From assembly GCA_027596945.1 (NCBI GenBank), contig JADGJH010000002.1, positions 1,696 through 59,772 on the forward strand: a stretch of 58,077 nt of DNA, read 5' to 3'. Numbering within the stretch: position 1 is the stretch's first letter; each line of letters begins with the position of its first letter. This DNA is from Physocladia obscura (Eukaryota > Chytridiomycota > Chytridiomycetes > Chytridiales > Chytriomycetaceae). The position numbers and the translations under genes are program-made. The notes below the pieces were generated by a model. It saw only the letters and a list, made by a program, of their open reading frames with translations, did not search any database and was not told where the DNA came from. Shown here piece by piece: positions 19,574 to 57,724 of this stretch.

Positions 19574-19969
19574 GTAATGCAAATAGTATAATTTACCTTT
19601 AAAGCATTTTATTAATGTGATAAACATCCCATGACTGATAGGAACATGTATATTTTGACTTTAATTTTCTTTCGAAGAATACCTCCAAAAAATCATTGGT
19701 GACAATGGGTGCAAACAATTTGCAAAGAATTGTATTCCCATGCATTTGAACTGAAGTATATTAATACCCACAGAGTCCTGCTACGCAAAAATGGAAAATT
19801 TATGGGAAAAGTGGTGCTTTACATATTTTCCGAAACTTATTGGAGCATGAAAGGTGAATATTTTCCTGCGATGTAGTGAAATTAAAGCAGAGACCTGTGA
19901 CACTGCTCAAGATTTTGCCACTTTTGGCACGTGTTGATTTTGATTGCTCGTGATTTAAAATGCTTGCAG

Positions 19970-22900
19970 GAACGAGACCAACCGCTCCGATCACCCCCAG
20001 TTTGGGCTATTCCATCACGGCAAGTGAAGCTACAAATGTTATCACCAATGCCGTGAAAAGTATTGTCCCCGTTCTATCAACTACAGCGCCGTTTGTCGCT
20101 CCAATCTTTGCTGGTAATTAATTGGTTGTTGGTTTTCCTAGGCATAGTTACAGTACTAAACAACAAATACACAGCCGCCACGTTTATTCTACAACAATGC
20201 CAAGCTGCTAAAAGTAATCGCAGTGACTTTCTTGCGCTGGGTGATCTTGTTGCTCGAGCGTCATTGTCAGTCAAGCAAACTGCAGAACACACTACAGTCC
20301 GCCGGGTGCATGCTGATGCGCTGCTCAAAGTCCTTCTCGAAATGAAAGATTTTCTTAAACGTTATGATACCGAAGAAGTCGATCGTGAGCACAGGGTTGA
20401 ACGGTATGTTTTCCGTCGGTTTGTCGAAATAGTTCTGATAAAACATACAAACCCAGATACGTTCACAAACTCAAAGCTATAATTTGTGCCAAAGATATCC
20501 AACTCGAGATTCGAGCATTGCAGTTTCGCTTAATCACTTGCGCTTCTTTTTTGAATCTCGATCTTCAGGTTTTTTTCTCCCATAGTTTCTGCCTTGAAAA
20601 AAGACACTCAAAAAACACCGTCTTGTAGGTGCGTACAGTTACTGGAATTGATGACGTAAAGCAAGATACTCAACAATTGCTTGCAAATAATGAAGCATTG
20701 ACGCAGAAAATTGATGAGCTGACTCTCAGATTTGAACAGCTTGCAGACTTGGCGATTTTCATGGCCCACGCCATGGAGAGAATTGAAACAATGAGCCCTG
20801 AAGGAAGAGGACGCATTACGGGCTCAAGTAGTGGCGACAGTGATCGCGATCGCCGTGCTTCTCTTTTTTCCGAAATGTCACCTACGAGATCCCTTGTGAA
20901 AATTGTCGACAGCTCACGAACGAAAGTATTCCAAGCTGCGCAAAATGCTCGGGCACGCGAATCAACTTTGCCATTTAATCAGTCGACACTACAGCAATGG
21001 ATGATTTCTTCGTTGGAAGTACAATTCGAAATGACTGATGATAACTTGATCGGTAGAGGCTCATCAGCAACAGTGTGAGTAATTTTATCTTAAGATTTTC
21101 CTTTTTTATTTAAATAATTTCGACAGGTACAAAGGATTCTACCACAATGAACCTGTTGCCGTAAAGCTGTTCCACAATTTAATCAACAACGATCCCGATT
21201 CACTTGAAACAGCAATTAGTAAAGAAATATCCACTTGGATGAAACTTTCGGGGAAGCCATATATTTTGCGTTTGGTTGGAGCTTGTACCAAAGTAAAGAA
21301 ACCATATATTGTCAGCGAGTACTGCTTTAGCACCGCGGACAAATATATCCGGCACAACCCCCAAGAACTAATGCGGATTATCTATGAACTTTCATGTGGA
21401 CTTGAAACGATTCATTTGGCCAGTTTCATACATCGCGATATCAAGTCGTTCAATATTTTAATTACCGAAAGAAAACACGTTGCAATTGCTGACTTTGGAT
21501 TGAGTAAAAATGCAGTTGAGCATCTCTCACAAACAAGTGGCATAAGTCCTCCAGCAAGTGTTGGGACTCTCAATTGGATGTCTCCGGAGCAGCGATTTCG
21601 GCCAAGACAAGTCTCAGCGAAATCCGACATTTGGTCTTTTGGAATGGTCATGTACGAGTTTGTTGCTGGAAAAGTACCATTCCACGACTACAGCGACGAA
21701 GAAATCAAGGTGGCTTTAAATAGTGAAAATGATCGCCCAACAAAACCAGATGGGTGCAGCCCGAAGTTGTGGGAACTTATTGTCAAGTGCTGGAAAAGTA
21801 ATCCAGATGAGAGACCGACTGCGTCAGATATCCGCATATTTTTGGAAAACGAATTCTATTCCTTACTTGGTTCAGCTGTTACGAACATAGACTGGACAAT
21901 TTTCATGAGTTACTGTTGGAAAAACTCCAGCGAAGCATTTCAGATGAATCAAATCAGGGAAGATACGGGATGCGGCGTGAGTATTACATTTTTTAAAAGC
22001 TTTTACTGTTGCTGACTTTTATAAAATATTAGCCTTGCGATCCAAGAAATCTGGCGCGAAAACTTACTTCCCTCGGGCATGTTACTTGGCTTGACGTCGA
22101 TCGTTTGAAAATTAATCAACCACTTTTCGAACATCTTGTTGATGGCTTGAATCCCGCGAAACTTGCAGTCATTTGTGTCTCGAATGAATATTCTCAGTCA
22201 GAAAATTGGTGAGCCAGAACAAACTCTTATTTGTTTGAGTCTCATTGAATATTCAGTGTCCGCGAGTTCAAATATATTGTCAATGAGTTAAAAATTCCGC
22301 ATATTATAGTCGTAGTTGGTCCTGATAGCCCTCATGACTGGAAACGCACTGTTATTGGTCTTTTAGCTGAAGATAAACTGGTTAAAAATTATTTTTCATA
22401 CTATATTTCTAATTATTCTACATCACGAATCGTAGTATATCGAAGCAAGAAGCCCTCTTCAGCAAGAATATGCTGACGATACATTTGCTAATATTGTCGA
22501 TGCTGTTGAAGATGCCTTGTGAGGATCCTGATCCTGTTGGGTATTGTATTTCCGACTAACTTTACCACAATAGAAACACCCAGAGAGAATTAAAAGTTGG
22601 CCCACAAATTCATGCTCATTTGGATGCCGCAGCATCTGTTAAACGTTTATCAAACATTTCATCTCCTTCAGTGCTGAAGCCAATTAAAACGACTCCCACA
22701 GTTATGGTTGAAAAACTTACATCTCCGATTAGCGAAAGAAGGCCAAATCCGACGAATATCTTGGAACTTGCTCAAGTTGGCGATATTCAGTCTCAAATCT
22801 TGGTTGCCAATGCTTTTGCTTCCGGCCAGCAAGGATTCCAAAAAGATATAAATCAAGCATTTAAATGGTACAAAAGTGCTGCTCTTGCTGGAAATGTACA

Positions 22901-24409
22901 AGCAGAATATGAAATTGGAGAGATGTATCAGAAAGGCACTGGCGTTGATCAAGATCTTGACAAAGCCGTAGAGTGGTTAGTATTTTTTTTTTTTTTTGAA
23001 TCGGATTTTTGTTTTGATTTGCAGGCATGTTCAGGTTTAAGCGAGCCGCTGCGAAAAACCATGCGCAAAGTCAAGTTTCTCTTGGAAGCATGTATTTGAA
23101 TGGCGTAGGTATTTTAGCATCGGATCCTGGCAAAGCCGTTGAATGCTTTAAAAAGGCTGCTTCCAGTGGAAACCCTGATGGACAAAATAGCCTTGGGCTC
23201 TGCTACATTGATGGCATAGGCGTTACAAAAGATCTCACGAAGGCCATTGAATGGTTTCTCAGCTTATCAGATTTATTTTGTTGATTAAAAAAAAAAAAAA
23301 AGGCTCTCAAAAGCTTCAACTCAGGGCCATATTGAAGCACAAAATCGGTTGGCATTAATTTATCTTCAAGATAATGGCCATCAAAGAGACGAAGCGCGTG
23401 CTATTGAATTGTTTGTTGTTTAATCTTATTATGTAGTTTTACGCTTTACATATCTATTGTTCACTTCAGGCTGAAAAAAGGTGCAGCTCTGAAAAATTCC
23501 AAAAGCCAAAATCTTCTTGGTCTTGCTTATCGAAACGGAACGGGAGTTAAAAAGTGCTATACTGATGCAGTTGAATGGTGAGCTTAATTGGAAAAAATTT
23601 TGACATTGAAAACAAAACCCAAGGTTTGAGCTCTCTGCTAGTCAAGGTAATATTGAAGCCAAAAATAATTTGGCATACATGTGCCTCAATGGTTTCGGAA
23701 CTCCTCAAGATTATCAGGAGGCCATAAATTTGTATACAATGACATCGTCTTTGGGTGATACTTCCGGACAAGTTGGACTAGCTTACATGCATCTGCATGG
23801 TTTAGGTGTTTCGAGAGATTTGGGAAGAGCCTTTGATTTGTTGAGTTTTTTTTTTTTCCCCCTTCTCTCTGTCTATCCTTTTGCTTTTTCTTCTAAGCAG
23901 TTCATCTAGATATACCAAAGCCGCAATTCAAGAAAATTCAGAAGCTCAATGCGCCCTTGGTCGAATGTATCAAAATGGTGCGGGTGTTGAAAGAAACCTA
24001 TATAAGGCATTTGATTGGTATCAAAAATCTGCAAGTCAAAATAACTCTGATGGACAAAATAATCTTGGTTTGATGTACTTAAACGGATATGGAATGGCAA
24101 AACCAAGTTTTTCAAAGGCTTTTGAATGGTTTTTCTTTCGCTCCAGCTTTTATTAATTCATGACTAACATTTTGAATTTCAGGTTTCAAAAATCAGCTAA
24201 ACAAGGTAATCCTAAAGGTGAAAACAATGTAGGCCATATGTATGAATATGGATATGGCGTTCGAAAAGATCAGCGGCAGGCAATTGAATGGTTTGTAAAC
24301 CAAATTTAGAAGAAACTGTAAAATTTATGAAATTTTTAGGTATGAAAAGGCAGCAAACCAAGACTTGGAGGATGCAATAAAATCATTACGTCGACTTGGG
24401 GTTGACTAA
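19970..24409 (+). CDS. TKL protein kinase - TIR-like domain - Sel1 repeat protein, 5' end uncertain
   Basis: Sixteen exons: 19970-20113, 20142-20403, 20457-20568, 20629-21074, 21127-21976, 22033-22208, 22257-22380, 22436-22518, 22574-22975, 23035-23253, 23303-23410, 23470-23577, 23624-23839, 23910-24128, 24183-24290 and 24340-24409, giving at least 1214 residues. After a helical N-terminal part comes a complete kinase: GRGSSATVYKG loop, VAVK lysine, HRDIKSFN loop, ADFGLS, SPEQ and DIWSFG. Next is a TIR-like domain (about 21880-22520: TIFMSYCW, VTWLDVD, AVICVSNEYSQSENCVREF, with the Glu of VREF at the NADase-Glu position). About eleven Sel1 repeats follow, typically SxLGxMYxxGxGVxxDxxKAxEW. 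Likely a signalling or innate-response adaptor kinase in the cytoplasm; its role is inference. The 28-nt intron 20114-20141 is unusually short. Confidence 0.85.
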
Positions 24410-28304: not shown

Positions 28305-29551
28305 TGGCCAGATATTTGCTGGGTATATTAAAAAAAAAAATTCAATAAATATTTGGGTACACAATATTTTTTGAAAGTAATTTCACCAAAACACCGGAAT
28401 AGCGAGTTTTCGAATGTATTTGCATCGACTGGACTAATTGAAGTTGTTGCAAACACTACAGCGAAGGGCAAAAACAAAAACCAATTAGTATTAACAACTT
28501 TTCTCCACTGTAACATAAATTATCAGTATTAATGGCTATAATTCCACCTCCTAACACCAAAGACTGCAGTATCCAGAGCTTTAACCACGGACACCACTGT
28601 TATTCCTCGCGCAAGACGCAACAATATTTGTTTCAATCAGCAAGAGCGACAACTATTCCACAAATATCCTCAAACAGGTATTGAGCAAAACCAAATTTTC
28701 TGGCGTTGTTTGTTATTGAAGTATATTCATAAAGCACGAGGCAGCATATTCAATGATTTCTGCAACATTTTTACAATTTCGAATTCGTCAGTAGGAAATT
28801 CAAGAAACTTTGCGTATGGTGCCTGCAATACAACTTGGAATCATTCATTTGCGACAGACGGGATAGTTATTATTGGCATTGATGCACTTGCCAAAAAATA
28901 TTTACCTTCTTTGAATACTCCGAGTTTCTTCATATTTAATCAGAAATAAACCCCCAATCCTTTGAAATCAGAAATAAGGCCGTTTCGGCAAACATCAGGA
29001 AAAAAATTCCAAATTTCAAAACGAATGTTCAAATTAAATCTGAAAAACACTCCTTTAATTCTGATAGTTGGGCGGATCTTCTGTGGAAATTCAATAAAAA
29101 ATGCAAGGAATTAATCCGACAATCTGAAATCCTTTTTTTTTTTTGTTTTTTTCTAAAGTAGTATGATTCAAGCGAGTCATGTCCTAAGTTGATTGAATTT
29201 TTTGCTCTTTTTTTTTGTTTGATTAGGTAGGTCACGTGCATTAGGCTTTGTGTAATCAGGAAATTTTTCGTTGGAGAGGAATTAGATTCTCGGTTTAACC
29301 TTATCTCTGAAAATTTCCGTAAAAATCATTAAACTTGTTGAATTCAGTTAATGATAACCAATATCGATAGCAAAAAAAAGAAAGAAATTGAAGCTAAACG
29401 AAATCAGCAAATAAATTTTGTGGAATCAAATAAGGACAAAAAAAAAAATTTTTTTTTCCAATGACAAAAAAAATTTAAACCACAGGACTATAAAGAACGC
29501 TGCAATATCTGAAAAATTTTAGTTCAAATCAAAAAGAAAAATTGGTTCGAA
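28305..29551. other. Intergenic with possible coding remnants
   Basis: Short open stretches occur on both strands between about 28530 and 29120 (plus: IPPPNTKDCSIQSFNHGHH and NSDSWADLLWKFNKKC; minus: APYAKFLEFPTDEFEIVKML), all broken by stops. They may be remains of a gene, but I cannot choose a strand or family. The end contains a TATA box for the cellulase gene. Confidence 0.4.
29489..29495 (+). promoter_or_regulatory. TATA box of the GH6 cellulase gene
   Basis: TATAAAG lies 57 bases before the ATG, with the fungal transcription start expected about 30 bases after it. A clear TATA box fits an inducible secreted-enzyme gene. Confidence 0.55.
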
Positions 29552-29860
29552 ATGAAACTGGCCGCTGTTCTTTCTGCAATTACTGTCGCTGCGCCGTTGC
29601 TGGTTGCCGCCCAGAGCTGCCAATCTATTTACCTGCAATGTGGTGGAATCAACTGGACTGGAGCTACTTGCTGTGCTTCTGGTACTGTGTGCACCGACTT
29701 GAATCCATATTACTACCAATGTCTTCCTGGAACTGCATCCTCAACAACCGCGACAAAAACCACTACTACCACAACCACCACAACCACAACGAAACCCACT
29801 ACTACTACTACTAGTACTACTACTAGTACTACCACTGCTACCTCAACTTCAAAACCAACA

Positions 29861-29900
<40 letters not shown>

Positions 29901-31204
29901 TTCCTACCACCACCACAACGACTACCACAGTCCCAACTACAAAAACAACGACCACAACTTCTGCCGCGCCAACGACCACTGCCAGTGCCGGCAACCCATA
30001 CACTGGTCAAAAGCTGTACACAAATTCACTTTGGATCACCCACATGCAATCTTCGGTCGCCATCGACTCAACATTGTCGTGCGCTGTCGGAAAGCTTTCA
30101 ACTGCTGGCCAATCGATTTGGTTGGACACGATGTCCGCTATTAGTTTGATTGCCCCAGCGCTTGCAGATGCAGAAACTGTTTCGGGTGGAGCACCAATCA
30201 TTATTCAATTTGTCATTTACGACTTGCCAGGGCGTGACTGCGCTGCATTGTAAGTTTTAATTCAAGAAAAAATTTTGTCGTCAAAAGAATGAAACTAATT
30301 TAACTCACTATAAAGGGCGTCGAATGGAGAGCTTCCAGCTACAGATGCCGGAATCGCGACATATAAATCAGATTACATTGACCCAATTGTTGCTGCCTTT
30401 AAATTGAAGGCTTCCAACATCCGTTTGGTTTTGATCATTGAACCGGATTCACTCCCTAACATTCTTACCAACGCAAACCTCGCGACTTGTGCTACATCGG
30501 CTCCATACTACCGCGAAGGAATCGAATACGCGTTGTCTCAGTTGGCCAACATTCCCAATGTGTACATGTACCTTGACATTGCCCACGGCGGCTGGCTCGG
30601 TTGGCCAAATAACCTGTCGGGAATTGTTCCAATTATGCAGTCGGTTCTCACTGCCGCAGTTGCTCTCAACCCAGCCGTTTCTTCAGCTGTGCGTGGATTT
30701 GCAACCAACGTTGCCAATTATTCGCCCACCCACGCCAACGGTGTTGCTCCAGTCGTTGGAGCAACACTTTCTCCGGGAACTTACAATGGCGTCACGTACG
30801 AAGAATACGAGGGCAATCCCGCCATTGACGAAACCACCTACGTTCAACTGCTCACTGAGGCGTTTGCCGGAACGGGTCTCCCAGCAAACTTTGTCATTGA
30901 CACGTCTCGTAATGGGCGCGCGGGTATCCGTGACGCGTGGGGTGACTGGTGCAACGTGAACGGAGCTGGTATTGGATACTTCCCGCAAGCCAGCCCAGAT
31001 TCTACAACTCCCAGTCTTGATGCATACACGTGGATCAAACCACAAGGAGACGCAGACGGGACATCCAATACTACTGCACCGCGTTATGATGCTCACTGTG
31101 GACTTGCTGATTCTCTCCCGAATGCGCCACAAGCGGGACAATGGTTCCACGCCGAATTCGATATGCTTGTCAAGAATGCGAACCCAGCAATTGCGGGATG
31201 CTGA
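29552..31204 (+). CDS. Secreted cellobiohydrolase, family GH6 with N-terminal CBM1 (528 residues)
   Basis: Exons 29552-30249 and 30316-31204. The enzyme cuts cellobiose from cellulose non-reducing ends with inversion. Residues 1-20 are a signal peptide ([21 protein letters not shown]). Residues 22-57 are a fungal cellulose-binding module ([19 protein letters not shown]...YYYQCLPG). A Thr-rich linker of about 80 residues follows. The GH6 domain starts near 147 (NPYTGQKLY) and has [18 protein letters not shown] with the first signature Asp, [10 protein letters not shown] with the catalytic acid region, [33 protein letters not shown] and the C-terminal NANPAI. It has the normal length and all signatures. 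The single 66-bp intron falls within the ALASNGE motif. A TATA box and an AATAAA at 31252 bracket the gene. Confidence 0.96.
29755..29965 (+). repeat. Threonine-codon microsatellite in the cellulase linker
   Basis: Runs of ACT and ACC/ACA triplets, including an almost pure (ACT)n tract around 29860-29900, encode the Thr-rich O-glycosylated linker between CBM1 and GH6. The tract is likely to vary in length between strains. Antisense it reads as a long poly-Val frame, which is a shadow. Confidence 0.8.
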
Positions 31205-53834: not shown

Positions 53835-56620
53835 ACGAAAGAACAGGTTCTCTGGAGATACTTTTCTGCCTGCAACATCATCAGGCTCTCTAAAACATTT
53901 TTTTAACGAAGATGCTTATTCGACGAAATCACGCTGTTAATGAGGATTTTCTGTTTGCAGAAGGAAAAAAATAATAATTACGCTTTATGCCTCACGGCCG
54001 CCCCCTCTTGTCGCGCTCCCCTCTTTTTTCTCTTTATTACCGTTCTGGTTCTCTTACTCTTGTCAACTTTCGTTTAATTTTTTTTTTTTTTTTTTTCGCC
54101 TCGTAAACTGTTTTTCGGGGGCAGAAGAAGGGAGGTAAAAAAGTTGTGAGCGTTTTATACATGGAGAGATATTTTCATGGTTTCTTTTTACTTTTTTTGT
54201 TCATTCTGGGATTCAGGTCTCCTCTTTTCATCTTTTTCTGGCTTTTTCTTTTTTGACTGGTCATGAGAACAAGGTTTTGGGAAGTGTTTTTTTCTTTTTT
54301 TCTTCTTCATTCCTTTTTTTTTCTTATATCTTTGGAAGTATGTATAGCTTTTCTTGCTTCTGTATCTCTTGCTTTTCTCTTCTCGATTTGTGACTAGTTT
54401 CAAGTGGTTTTTTTTTCAAGTTCAAGCTTTGCCATGAATTTAATTTTCAATTTCTTCTGTGTTCAAAAAAGTGTTCAAATTCTTCTCTTGATTAGTATTT
54501 CAGAAGTGAAGAAACTCGCAATAGCTCAAAAAAAAAAACGTAACGACAGAGGATTTGCCACAAATCGCTTCTCATTCAAAACGAATCGAAAAAATAAATA
54601 ATGACTCACTATCCTACCAATTCGAAATCACGCCACGACAATGTTTGACAACCCAGACTTTATCGGCAATTAGCTCCACGAAGCGCATATCGATCCGAAT
54701 GCCGGTGCATCGTTGGATAGCTATTCATTTGATATCACCGCTGCTATAATCAGACAGACGTCAATATAAGAATTTATAAGAACGTTTAATTTAGTTATTT
54801 TTTTGTAAGTTACAAAAACCAACTACCGTTCTGTAACTGAACGACGAAACAGAAACATGGGCGTAAGAATGTGAGTGGTTGAGAACTTGCATAAACGCAA
54901 CTGCAAGGCATAACCAGGTCGTTAAAAAGGAATATCACTATCGGAACAAAACAATTTGATACAGCTATCATATCAAAATATTCACATTTGTTCCGCGTGG
55001 AGCAACGTGAGTGTCATACATGTTTTTACATTATTTGAGAGTCACGCGAATCAATTAAAATTGAACAAAGCTAATCACACAAAATTCAGACTTTTTCATT
55101 TGAATGCAAGGAATTATCTGAATAAATGCGTTGCGAAACAGAAGGAGATTGACTAGGAAAAAAACATTATGCTTTTGAGGGAAAAATTTTTGCTATCGTC
55201 ATCCAACGCCGCTGTTGAAGTTAATGGTTTTTGTCCTAGATGGCATTGAAGATACTACTGTCCCTGAAAAACTAGGTGGAAGCAAAAAAGTCGAAGAGTC
55301 GGTCAAAAGATGGTAGAGAAAGTAAATTGCTCGGAGACTAGTAGCGGTAGGGAATAATAAATGGTATATGGAAACCAGAAACGTAAGCGCTTGCTTGTAA
55401 TTTTTTTTTTGATTTATGTTTTGGATATTTAAATGCAAAATTTTTCTCATTCCGAAATTGGTGTAAATCAACAAGATACTGGAACTTCACAACTATATTG
55501 CAGTAATCGTATCTCGGTCGCTCGAAAATCTCTGGACACATGAAATCAGAGTTCTGAATAGCCAAAAAAAAAAAAATCCACACCGGATATTCTGTCTTAA
55601 AAGATAATGTCATGTCACAACTTTTTTGGCATTGAAATCGCACTTGCGATATTCGACAATTCATGCCGTAGACAGTTGTTCAAAATTGTTTTGCTGAAAT
55701 TCAATATCAGTACAACGGATATGGTAAAGATGTTGAATGGAGCAAAATTGCACATCAACGCAATATCATTGTTTACTCGCGGAGATTTATTATTTCTTTA
55801 TTTTATGGCACGGTGTATTCACATTACAATCAAAATGGTTCTCTTGGAATATAATAAAAAATGTAAATACAATTCAAATGAATATTAAAAAATTATCCGT
55901 GAATATGTGGATGCATATTATTTTTTTCAACAAAAGAAAATAATTCCAATAATAGTTATAAGTTGGAAAGAAATTTGAAGCAACATATTATTCATTAACT
56001 TAGTGTATTTAAATTGTTCTTATTTGTCAATATATATATATATATATATTATTTCCCCCTCCCGATTGACTCAGATGTCCACGTAGAATATATTTCTATA
56101 AAACAGGAAATATATTTTTGATATTTGCATCCTGAAATAACTCATCTTAATTTTATATTGCCTAATAAAAAAAATTTGATTTATTATTATTTGTCGACTT
56201 ATTATGCTTTTACGTTTCCATGAGTCATAATTATACTAAAGACCAAATATATAATGTGTTAAAAATAATGTCCATCGAATGCGCTTGCTTGGATTTTTGA
56301 TGTCGCTGTTTTCCGGTTAATTTCATTATGAAATGAAATGAAAAAAAATTCTGACAGTGTCTCTTTTTTTTTCATTAAAGTTTTCATTTAAGCCACCATC
56401 AGCGTCAATGATATTCTATGAGAGAAAGAAAGTTGAAGTGATTGTCTGCTGGACGGTAGAAAAATAACCAGTTGAAGGAGTACCATGGCGGCACCAGGTG
56501 TCTGTCAGAAGTCGGCGAGATTTTGTTTGTTTATCCACTGCCCGCAACAAAAAATTTTCATTTTGAAATTGATATAAACAAGTCATTAATCTTTTCTATA
56601 AGATAATAATTAAGTGAAAA
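53835..56620. other. Large intergenic region, nothing intact
   Basis: About 2.8 kb of AT-rich DNA with T runs near 54080 and a (TA)n tract at about 56031-56050. Short open frames at 54188-54400 (Lys-rich antisense of T-rich DNA) and 55340-55890 have no protein-like pattern. No repeat or RNA gene is supported. Confidence 0.5.
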
Positions 56621-57724
56621 ATGACGACAGTTACCTCTGCAAGCAACACTTACTCGTTCATAACGATCAATGACGCGGCGGACCCGACATTCAACCAACT
56701 GTTGGGCATTAACAACGCAAACACGATTGCCGGTTACTTTGGCAGCGGCGCTACCGACCACCCTAATGTCGGATACATCCTCGCTTCGCCAAACTACCTG
56801 ACTAATATCGACTTGGCCAACTTTCCCAACGCCAACCAGACGCAGCAGATTGGCATTAATGCGGACGGCACTACCGTCGGCTTCTATGTAGACGCAGAAG
56901 GAAACAACTTTGGCTTCGTGTTCGCGTCAGGCACTTATACTACAGTTGCCAGCCCTGAGACCGGTGCGGGCACCGTCAATCAGTTGCTGGGTCTCAACGG
57001 TGGCTATGCAGTTGGCTTCTTCACGGACGAGACTGGCAACAACCATGGTTACTCGTACGACATTGCGACGCAGGCGTTCGCTGATGTCACGCCCCCTGCT
57101 GCCTTCGCTTGCACATCCACCACTGCCACTTCCACCAACAACAACGGAGATGTTGTTGGCTTCTGCGACACAGACGCAAACACCACCATCTCTTTCTTTG
57201 CCAACAGCGGCAGCTACCTGCAGCTCAACGTGCCTGGCTCCACAAACACTCAAGCGTTTGGTATCAACATTAACAGGGATGTTGTCGGTTCGTTCGTTGA
57301 CGCCGAAGGGGTCACCCACGGCTTTATTGCGACCGGCGCGAACACCGCCACTCCCACCTACCAGTCCATTGACCACCCCAGTGCCGTAAACTCGACTATT
57401 CTCAACGGCATCAATGACCAGGGCTACATTGTAGGCTTCTACCTTGATGCTGGCGGCAACACTAACGGTGTGCTTGCAACCCCTGGCGGGACAGGTTCCA
57501 CCTCTATTGCTCCTGGCTCTGGCATTGCCACTATTGCCACTAGTAGCTCTGCTTCCACGGTACCGGCCAGCTCTACTACTACAACTACTACAACTGCTGC
57601 TTCAGCAACTGTTGCCAAAGTTAGCAGTGTTTCAATTCCTACTGGCCTTACAAGTGGTTCTGCAATGAACTTTTCTCTGTTTTCAGCTGCAATTTTAGCT
57701 GCCATCAGTGTTTTGATTATTTGA
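56621..57724 (+). CDS. HAF-repeat surface protein with GPI-anchor-like C-terminus (367 residues)
   Basis: Intronless frame of 367 residues. It consists of repeated units of about 40-50 residues with a GINxxGxxVGFYxDAxGxxxGF core: GINNANTIAGYFG, GINADGTTVGFYVDAEGNNFGF, GLNGGYAVGFFTDETGNNHG, GININRDVVGSFVDAEGVTHGF, GINDQGYIVGFYLDAGGNTNG. This is the pattern of bacterial 'HAF' extracellular repeat proteins. The end is Ser/Thr-rich, followed by a 20-residue hydrophobic tail (SLFSAAILAAISVLII), as in fungal GPI-anchored wall proteins. No N-terminal signal peptide is encoded from this ATG, so export is unclear. The DNA is clearly richer in G+C than its surroundings. Transfer from a bacterium and later gain of a fungal C-terminus is the best inference. 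An AATAAA lies at 57747. Confidence 0.8.
   Translation: MTTVTSASNTYSFITINDAADPTFNQLLGINNANTIAGYFGSGATDHPNVGYILASPNYLTNIDLANFPNANQTQQIGINADGTTVGFYVDAEGNNFGFVFASGTYTTVASPETGAGTVNQLLGLNGGYAVGFFTDETGNNHGYSYDIATQAFADVTPPAAFACTSTTATSTNNNGDVVGFCDTDANTTISFFANSGSYLQLNVPGSTNTQAFGININRDVVGSFVDAEGVTHGFIATGANTATPTYQSIDHPSAVNSTILNGINDQGYIVGFYLDAGGNTNGVLATPGGTGSTSIAPGSGIATIATSSSASTVPASSTTTTTTTAASATVAKVSSVSIPTGLTSGSAMNFSLFSAAILAAISVLII

What the first reader, a model, noticed from the sequence alone, without database searches (positions are those of the whole stretch)
19970..24409. One polypeptide joins a TKL kinase, a TIR-like domain and about eleven Sel1 repeats
The frame encodes an intact kinase (VAVK, HRDIKSFN, DFG), then a TIR-like fold (TIFMSYCW ... 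VTWLDVD ... CVSNEYSQSENCVREF) and Sel1 repeats to the stop. TKL-Sel1 proteins are known in early-diverging fungi. A TIR module between the two, with a Glu where NAD-cleaving TIR domains have their catalytic Glu, suggests a fungal innate-type signalling protein that could couple phosphorylation to NAD+ signalling. TIR and Sel1 domains also meet in bacterial immune systems; any link is speculative.
Basis: partly seen in the sequence, partly recalled or inferred. Interest (0 to 1): 0.8.

Follow-up and report, generated by a model that had tools for sequence, protein, structure and literature searches.

The report
Chytrid kinase-TIR-Sel1 four-module signalling protein
A gene of a chytrid fungus encodes one long protein that strings together a conserved head, an intact protein kinase, an immune-type TIR domain and eleven Sel1 repeats, and the same order in three related genera suggests a real but untested signalling switch.

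Summary
In Physocladia obscura (Chytridiomycota), window 19960-24409 splices into 16 exons, 1207 aa, equal to public HK100_003862 except at one splice junction. Pfam finds a kinase, TIR_2 over its cut-off and eleven Sel1 stretches; the kinase-TIR junction lies inside one exon. The same order is predicted in Podochytrium, Siphonaria and Entophlyctis (53-63% pairwise TIR identity). No second copy was found; of 25 TIR_2 matches on 23 contigs only this one shares a contig with a Sel1 match. Best reading: an innate-type or cell-death signalling protein with Sel1 as sensor or scaffold, TIR as assembler and perhaps NADase, and an active kinase.

The parts
19960..24409 (+). whole gene, 16 exons, 1207 aa
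   Evidence: splice model; public protein P0001; orthologs P0002-P0004
20041..20194 (+). hydrophobic N-terminal segment (aa 28-58), interrupted by intron 20114-20174
   Evidence: best 19-residue mean hydropathy in the first 70 residues 1.74 in P0001, 1.8 in P0003, 1.42 in P0004, 0.96 in P0002, whose model lacks this part
20113..20691 (+). N-terminal domain (about aa 52-186), helical by inference only; weakly MLKL_N-like in two orthologs and shared with two Aphanomyces TKL-type kinases
   Evidence: the window's own copy gives no MLKL_N match
21040..21835 (+). protein kinase domain with intact VAVK, HRDIK..N, DFG, SPE
21887..22518 (+). TIR domain (exons 5-8)
   Evidence: Pfam TIR_2; PDB profile matches
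21971..22038 (+). CGPC (CxxC) motif split by intron 21977-22032, in an insertion behind the first strand motif of the TIR; present in 4 of 4
22264..22266 (+). Glu codon of VREF (E659), at the position of the catalytic Glu of plant TIRs; residue -4 is Asn, not Trp
22758..24406 (+). Sel1 repeat array, 11 Pfam stretches plus a partial cap; all seven introns in the array are phase 2 at the same place in the repeat

Best explanation
A family-conserved chytrid signalling protein, apparently single copy, of innate-immunity or regulated-cell-death type. Proposed working: the Sel1 array binds a protein or microbial cue or a scaffold (inferred); this releases or clusters the chain; the TIR domains assemble (inferred) and may cleave NAD+ with E659 (possible, not shown); the neighbouring intact TKL-type kinase, joined to the TIR by a linker of about 18 residues, is brought close to others and phosphorylates itself or the N-terminal head (inferred); the head with its hydrophobic segment then oligomerises or engages a membrane (inferred from a weak MLKL_N resemblance). 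Shown here: the anatomy, its prediction in four genera, intact kinase motifs, TIR profile membership and the invariant Glu.
For: One exon (21127-21976) spans the kinase-TIR junction. Same order in 4 of 4 public proteins. Mean pairwise identity of the TIR (0.58) is near that of the kinase (0.64) and N-terminal region (0.56) and far above the spacer (0.24), so the TIR is under constraint. Kinase motifs VAVK, HRD, DFG and WMSPE in 4 of 4. Glu invariant in 4 of 4 and aligned to Roq1 position 86. No second copy of the N-terminal region or of this TIR subtype found in the genome; the only other TIR reached by single-sequence search is 29% identical. N-terminal MLKL_N match below cut-off in 2 of 4 orthologs, same register, 0 of 6 reversed or shuffled controls made from P0002. 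Literature context (passages): HELL domains in proteins with kinase/pseudokinase in fungi (PMC12881547); MLKL-family homologs with Sel1 repeats in Glomeromycotina (PMC8778642).
Against: No expression, structure or biochemical evidence. The Trp at -4 of the Glu is Asn in the window, P0002 and P0003. The window's own N-terminal region, P0003 and a consensus of the four give no MLKL_N match, and P0004 matches in only one of the five constructs scanned (twice, 75, 89). Profile comparison with the MLKL_N regions of Funneliformis fails (probability 0.3%, 6% with P-value 0.006) and the PDB profile searches of this region list no MLKL. The genes beside it look by eye like ordinary genes, not a defence cluster (families not searched).
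Confidence: 0.42

Rival explanations
1. The TIR is a non-catalytic oligomerisation or adaptor module: a scaffolded kinase in which TIR contacts and Sel1 repeats only bring kinase domains together, as TIRs do in Toll/MyD88 signalling (recalled).
For: Asn instead of Trp before the Glu. Of ten other TIR loci of this genome that I read, four have Asn-Cys at this place too (L002, L004, L009 with Glu; L007 with Asp in place of the Glu), so part of this repertoire may lack NADase function. Kinase and TIR lie back to back; a kinase-TIR-ankyrin protein exists elsewhere (P0107).
Against: The catalytic-position Glu is kept in 4 of 4 orthologs.
Confidence: 0.33
2. An ordinary TKL-Sel1 environmental or nutrient signalling kinase of early-diverging fungi into which a TIR was inserted, with no immune or cell-death role.
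For: Kinase-Sel1 loci on contigs without a TIR_2 match are present in the same genome (C159 twice, C432, C243) and kinase-Sel1 proteins in Glomeromycotina; R. irregularis kinase and Sel1-like families have been proposed to serve perception of the environment (PMC8647823, passages).
Against: The N-terminal region was found nowhere else in the genome, those loci included, and the proteins outside chytrids that match its head profile best are two Aphanomyces kinases (among 120 proteins), so it looks like a separate lineage.
Confidence: 0.2
3. Gene-model artefact: two neighbouring genes (kinase-TIR and Sel1) joined by prediction.
For: Without splicing of intron 22519-22573 the frame stops directly after the TIR (sequence); no transcript data were available; one ortholog record (P0003) is marked UNVERIFIED_CONTAM by its source.
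Against: Same join predicted in three further genera; residues just past the splice are alike in 3 of 4 (LNTQ, LNVT, LNCQ; P0003 has LEFS); canonical GT..AG with matching phase. The kinase-TIR join needs no splice at all.
Confidence: 0.05

Closest known systems
Kinase-Sel1 proteins of Glomeromycotina (MLKL-family homologs with Sel1 repeats, PMC8778642 passages; P0010, P0012)
   Same: TKL-type kinase followed by Sel1 repeats; P0012 also has a Pfam MLKL_N domain before the kinase
   Different: no TIR match; P0012 carries two N-domain-kinase-Sel1 units
MLKL (animal and plant necroptosis-type executioners)
   Same: a conserved N-terminal domain directly before a kinase fold; MLKL_N resemblance in 2 of 4 orthologs
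   Different: resemblance below the curated cut-off and absent in the window's own copy; kinase motifs intact rather than pseudokinase; TIR and Sel1 added
Plant and bacterial TIR NADases (Roq1, RPV1, RUN1, AbTIR)
   Same: best PDB profile matches, Glu aligned
   Different: weak E-values (0.0099 to 1.2), Trp at -4 missing, insertion of about 25 residues with CGPC behind the first strand motif
Aphanomyces euteiches kinases P0005 and P0006
   Same: related N-terminal domain (25.3 and 27.0 bits to the head profile) before a kinase
   Different: no TIR or Sel1 match; a second kinase in both, ankyrin repeats in P0005. P0008 and P0009 were aligned with them but do not match the head profile (1.2 and 1.4 bits)
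P0107, kinase-TIR-ankyrin protein (ENA, organism not given)
   Same: TIR follows the kinase directly, then a repeat array
   Different: ankyrin instead of Sel1; kinase starts near the N-terminus
Avs5 bacterial immune proteins (PMC12931631, passages)
   Same: NAD-related effector domain with C-terminal TPR/Sel1-like sensor repeats
   Different: NAD/FAD-binding-superfamily effector and STAND NTPase; no kinase named in the passages

Membership tests
TIR domain | sequence profile of the TIR family over curated cut-off | tested here: met
   TIR_2 35.1 bits against 28 for the window's protein; 3 of 4 public proteins over the cut-off, P0003 26.3; PF01582 below its cut-off in 4 of 4
TIR domain | five-stranded flavodoxin-like fold | not testable with these tools
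TIR NADase | catalytic Glu in the third helix | tested here: met
   E659 invariant in 4 of 4, aligned to Roq1 position 86
TIR NADase | Trp four residues before that Glu, as in the plant TIRs | tested here: not met
   Asn in the window, P0002 and P0003; the P0004 model has an extra stretch behind its Asn
TIR NADase | NAD+ cleavage | not testable with these tools
   needs a bench assay
active TKL-type protein kinase | VAIK Lys, HRD Asp, DFG Asp, APE-like Glu | tested here: met
   VAVK, IHRD, DFG and NWMSPE in 4 of 4
active TKL-type protein kinase | membership of the TKL group rather than TK | tested here: inconclusive
   best kinase family PF07714; the 60 listed of 558 PDB matches mix SYK, ABL, MAP3K12 and an EGFR entry; no kinase tree was built
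Sel1 repeat protein | tandem PF08238 repeats | tested here: met
   11 stretches; solved Sel1 proteins are the best full-profile PDB matches
MLKL family | MLKL_N four-helix domain | tested here: inconclusive
   2 of 4 orthologs match below the cut-off of 27 bits (P0002 23.5 bits; P0004 16.9 bits in 1 of 5 constructs); window and P0003 none; 0 of 6 controls; profile comparisons negative
MLKL family | pseudokinase lacking catalytic residues (animal MLKL, recalled) | tested here: not met
   catalytic motifs intact in 4 of 4
fungal NLR | NB-ARC or NACHT domain | tested here: not met
   no such Pfam match up to E = 1

The most novel reading that the evidence does not exclude
A one-chain necrosome: sensor (Sel1), assembling NADase (TIR), active RIPK-like kinase and MLKL-like membrane-attacking head in a single fungal polypeptide, so that NAD+ depletion and membrane permeabilisation are triggered by the same switch. 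It would put in one protein what animals spread over SARM1, RIPK3 and MLKL.
Probability: 0.12. Interest if true: 0.88.

Novelty: new variant of a known kind. Interest (0 to 1): 0.58.

Why it matters
Two recent reviews of fungal immunity and cell death (PMC10197012, PMC12881547; passages read) do not contain the word chytrid in their main text (counts), although TIR-bearing NLRs of Chytridiomycota are on record (PMC9815663, passages). A conserved chytrid protein that places a TIR between an active-looking kinase and a Sel1 array gives one concrete gene in which kinase-TIR coupling, and any NAD+ signalling in chytrids, can be tested. I found no paper on a kinase-TIR-Sel1 protein: searches returned none; one search returned two papers (listing only, not opened); search 44 three (passages of two); search 72 four (passages of two). 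Only open-licence PMC papers are held, so this is weak evidence of novelty.

Tried and rejected
Prokaryotic or viral origin of this TIR subtype: no relative confirmed in genome contigs (77 pattern matches) or viral contigs (23 pattern matches); this only speaks against close relatives. PADLOC gave, among the 25 shown of 34-35 families per protein, only kinase models; NCBIfam gave 16 families, kinase and repeat matches far below their cut-offs. MLKL_N as an established domain: rejected as established, kept as suggestive. An MLKL_N family search of the own genome returned nothing, but its control did not ring either, so it says nothing. A gene cluster around the locus: not seen by eye in the long ORFs of the window; their families were not searched. 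My notebook is looser than this report in places: it calls the Asn chytrid-wide, gives 4 of 236 where only 120 were listed, and records the first gene model.
Full report
IDENTITY. The window lies in contig C2 (59,772 bases) of an assembly of 21.76 Mb in 1222 contigs. The encoded protein is public HK100_003862 of Physocladia obscura, on a contig of the same length; family Chytriomycetaceae, Chytridiomycota.

GENE MODEL. I read splice sites by eye, tested them by translation and corrected intron 1 after comparison with orthologs: 16 exons 19960-24409, 15 GT..AG introns of 46-70 nt, 1207 aa, one terminal stop. The first version (28-nt first intron, 1218 aa) was used. The public protein differs only by FSSR in place of L at exon 13/14; P0002, P0003 and P0004 have no extra residues there, so I keep mine. 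The kinase-TIR junction lies inside exon 5 (21127-21976), so no splicing is needed for it. The TIR-Sel1 junction depends on splicing of intron 22519-22573; if retained, the frame stops right after the TIR. Seven of seven introns inside the Sel1 array (introns 9-15) are phase 2 and fall at the same place of the repeat, before a residue that is Trp in 5 and Leu in 2; exons 10-15 have 219, 108, 108, 216, 219 and 108 nt, one or two repeats each, which suggests growth of the array by exon duplication.

DOMAINS. The TIR segment alone gives 40.7 bits. A profile of the four orthologous TIRs against PDB sequences lists 16 distinct sequences up to E = 10: 14 that I take for TIR proteins by name or recall (Roq1 E 0.0099, RPV1, RUN1, AbTIR and others) and two O-methyltransferases. 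The Roq1 alignment puts the window's VREF Glu on chain position 86 (counted), recalled by me as its catalytic Glu, and the Asn before it on a Trp.

CONSERVATION. A search with the TIR region (490 candidates) found 4 proteins at E <= 1e-3: this one and orthologs in Podochytrium sp. JEL0797, Siphonaria sp. JEL0065 (record marked UNVERIFIED_CONTAM by its source) and Entophlyctis sp. JEL0112, all Chytriomycetaceae. All four carry kinase, TIR_2 and Sel1. A profile search with the full alignment found 236 proteins at E <= 1e-10 among the 7991 candidates scored; 120 were listed. By my reading of their Pfam column 4 of these 120 have kinase+TIR+Sel1, one (P0107) kinase+TIR+ankyrin, two AM-fungal ones (P0010, P0012) kinase+Sel1. 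The other 116 were not shown, and candidates are limited by length and shared words, so absence elsewhere is not shown. Mean pairwise identity among the four: kinase 0.64, TIR 0.58, N-terminal region 0.56, Sel1 0.47, linker before the kinase 0.40, spacer behind the TIR 0.24.

OWN GENOME. 25 TIR_2 matches on 23 contigs, 71 Sel1 matches on 16 contigs and 152 kinase matches, not all listed; all are lower bounds in a fragmented assembly. C2, the window's contig, is the only one with both TIR_2 and Sel1 matches (recounted). Kinase followed by Sel1 occurs at C159 (two places), C432 and C243; read in unspliced frames, 3 of these 4 have degraded catalytic motifs (HSN, HGN or HTA for HRD; DVN, DIN or DIG for DFG), the C432 copy has HAD and DFG. 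Single-sequence search with the window's TIR finds one other place (C499, 29% identity, 8.3e-5); with its N-terminal region none.

CATALYTIC RESIDUES. The kinase has VAVK, HRD, DFG and WMSPE in 4 of 4 (the HRD position printed for P0002 is another HRD in its linker). In the TIR the Glu is invariant in 4 of 4, while the residue at -4, Trp in the plant TIRs, is Asn in the window, P0002 and P0003; P0004 has the aligned Asn but a short extra stretch behind it. Of ten other TIR loci of this genome that I read, L002, L004 and L009 have NCKRE, L007 NCNLD, L001 YCKRE, L003 ECEAE, L006 ACFIE, L005 and L008 no such Cys, and L010 is cut short before it. So the Asn is not peculiar to this protein, nor is it general. 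That the Trp matters for catalysis is recalled; a paper search on it returned nothing. An insertion behind the first strand motif carries CGPC, a CxxC of the thioredoxin type (recalled), in 4 of 4; its meaning is unknown.

N-TERMINAL HEAD. The first 70 residues hold a hydrophobic stretch (best 19-residue mean 1.74 in P0001, 1.8 in P0003, 1.42 in P0004, 0.96 in P0002, whose model is short there). The following region matches Pfam MLKL_N below the cut-off of 27 bits in P0002 (17.8 bits, E 0.0025 in the full protein; 23.5 bits, E 4.2e-5 trimmed) and in one trimmed P0004 construct (16.9 bits, 0.0047), from profile position 7 or 8 to 124 or 125 of 142; one unnamed member each matches (3.3e-4, 6.3e-5). 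Against: no match for the window or P0001, P0003, a consensus of the four or four further P0004 constructs (twice, 89); profile comparison with Funneliformis MLKL_N regions negative; PDB profile searches list no MLKL. Controls: 0 of 6 reversed or shuffled P0002 sequences matched MLKL_N. A profile of the four heads against the 120 fetched proteins ranks Aphanomyces euteiches kinases P0006 and P0005 first after the orthologs (27.0 and 25.3 bits; next 5.2; best reversed decoy 2.2), so head plus kinase is a unit shared with an oomycete; P0012, which has a Pfam MLKL_N domain, does not match this profile. No secondary structure was computed: helical is an inference.

LITERATURE (passages only). PMC8778642: MLKL-family homologs exclusively in Glomeromycotina in that study, with Sel1 repeats. 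PMC12881547: some HELL domains occur with kinase or pseudokinase, reminiscent of MLKL. PMC9815663: TIR reported in NLRs of plants, bacteria and Chytridiomycota. [quoted passage not shown] PMC8647823: kinase and Sel1-like families highly expanded in R. irregularis. PMC12931631: Sel1-like/TPR repeats in the sensor part of Avs5. PMC7159879: TIR and Sel1 among effector modules of bacterial conflict systems. PMC4102429: no bearing.

VERDICT. The architecture is real by sequence, predicted in four genera and not described in what I could search. The immune or cell-death role is an inference from the parts; NADase activity is an even bet at most; the MLKL-like head is a lead that one structure prediction could settle.

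Noticed in passing
window 22758-24406: All seven introns of the Sel1 array sit at the same place of the repeat and in phase 2; inner exons are one or two repeats long, as if the array grew by exon duplication.
   Followed up: partly
window 21971-22038: CGPC motif inside the TIR insertion, present in 4 of 4 orthologs; a possible redox or metal site.
   Followed up: no
L020, L021, L023 (G000 C159, C243): Kinase-Sel1 loci with degraded catalytic motifs (HSN/HGN/HTA; DVN/DIN/DIG) in unspliced frames, so perhaps pseudokinase-Sel1 proteins.
   Followed up: partly
L002 and L004 (G000 C499): Two TIR segments in tandem within about 1 kb on one contig.
   Followed up: no
P0005, P0006 (Aphanomyces euteiches): Head-kinase unit related to the chytrid one, with a second kinase and, in P0005, ankyrin repeats.
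   Followed up: partly
window 56618-57721: Long single ORF of a repetitive protein with a Ser/Thr-rich tail that looks secreted by eye; not searched.
   Followed up: no
window 29513-31201: ORFs resembling a cellulose-binding module plus a GH6-type cellulase by eye; not searched.
   Followed up: no
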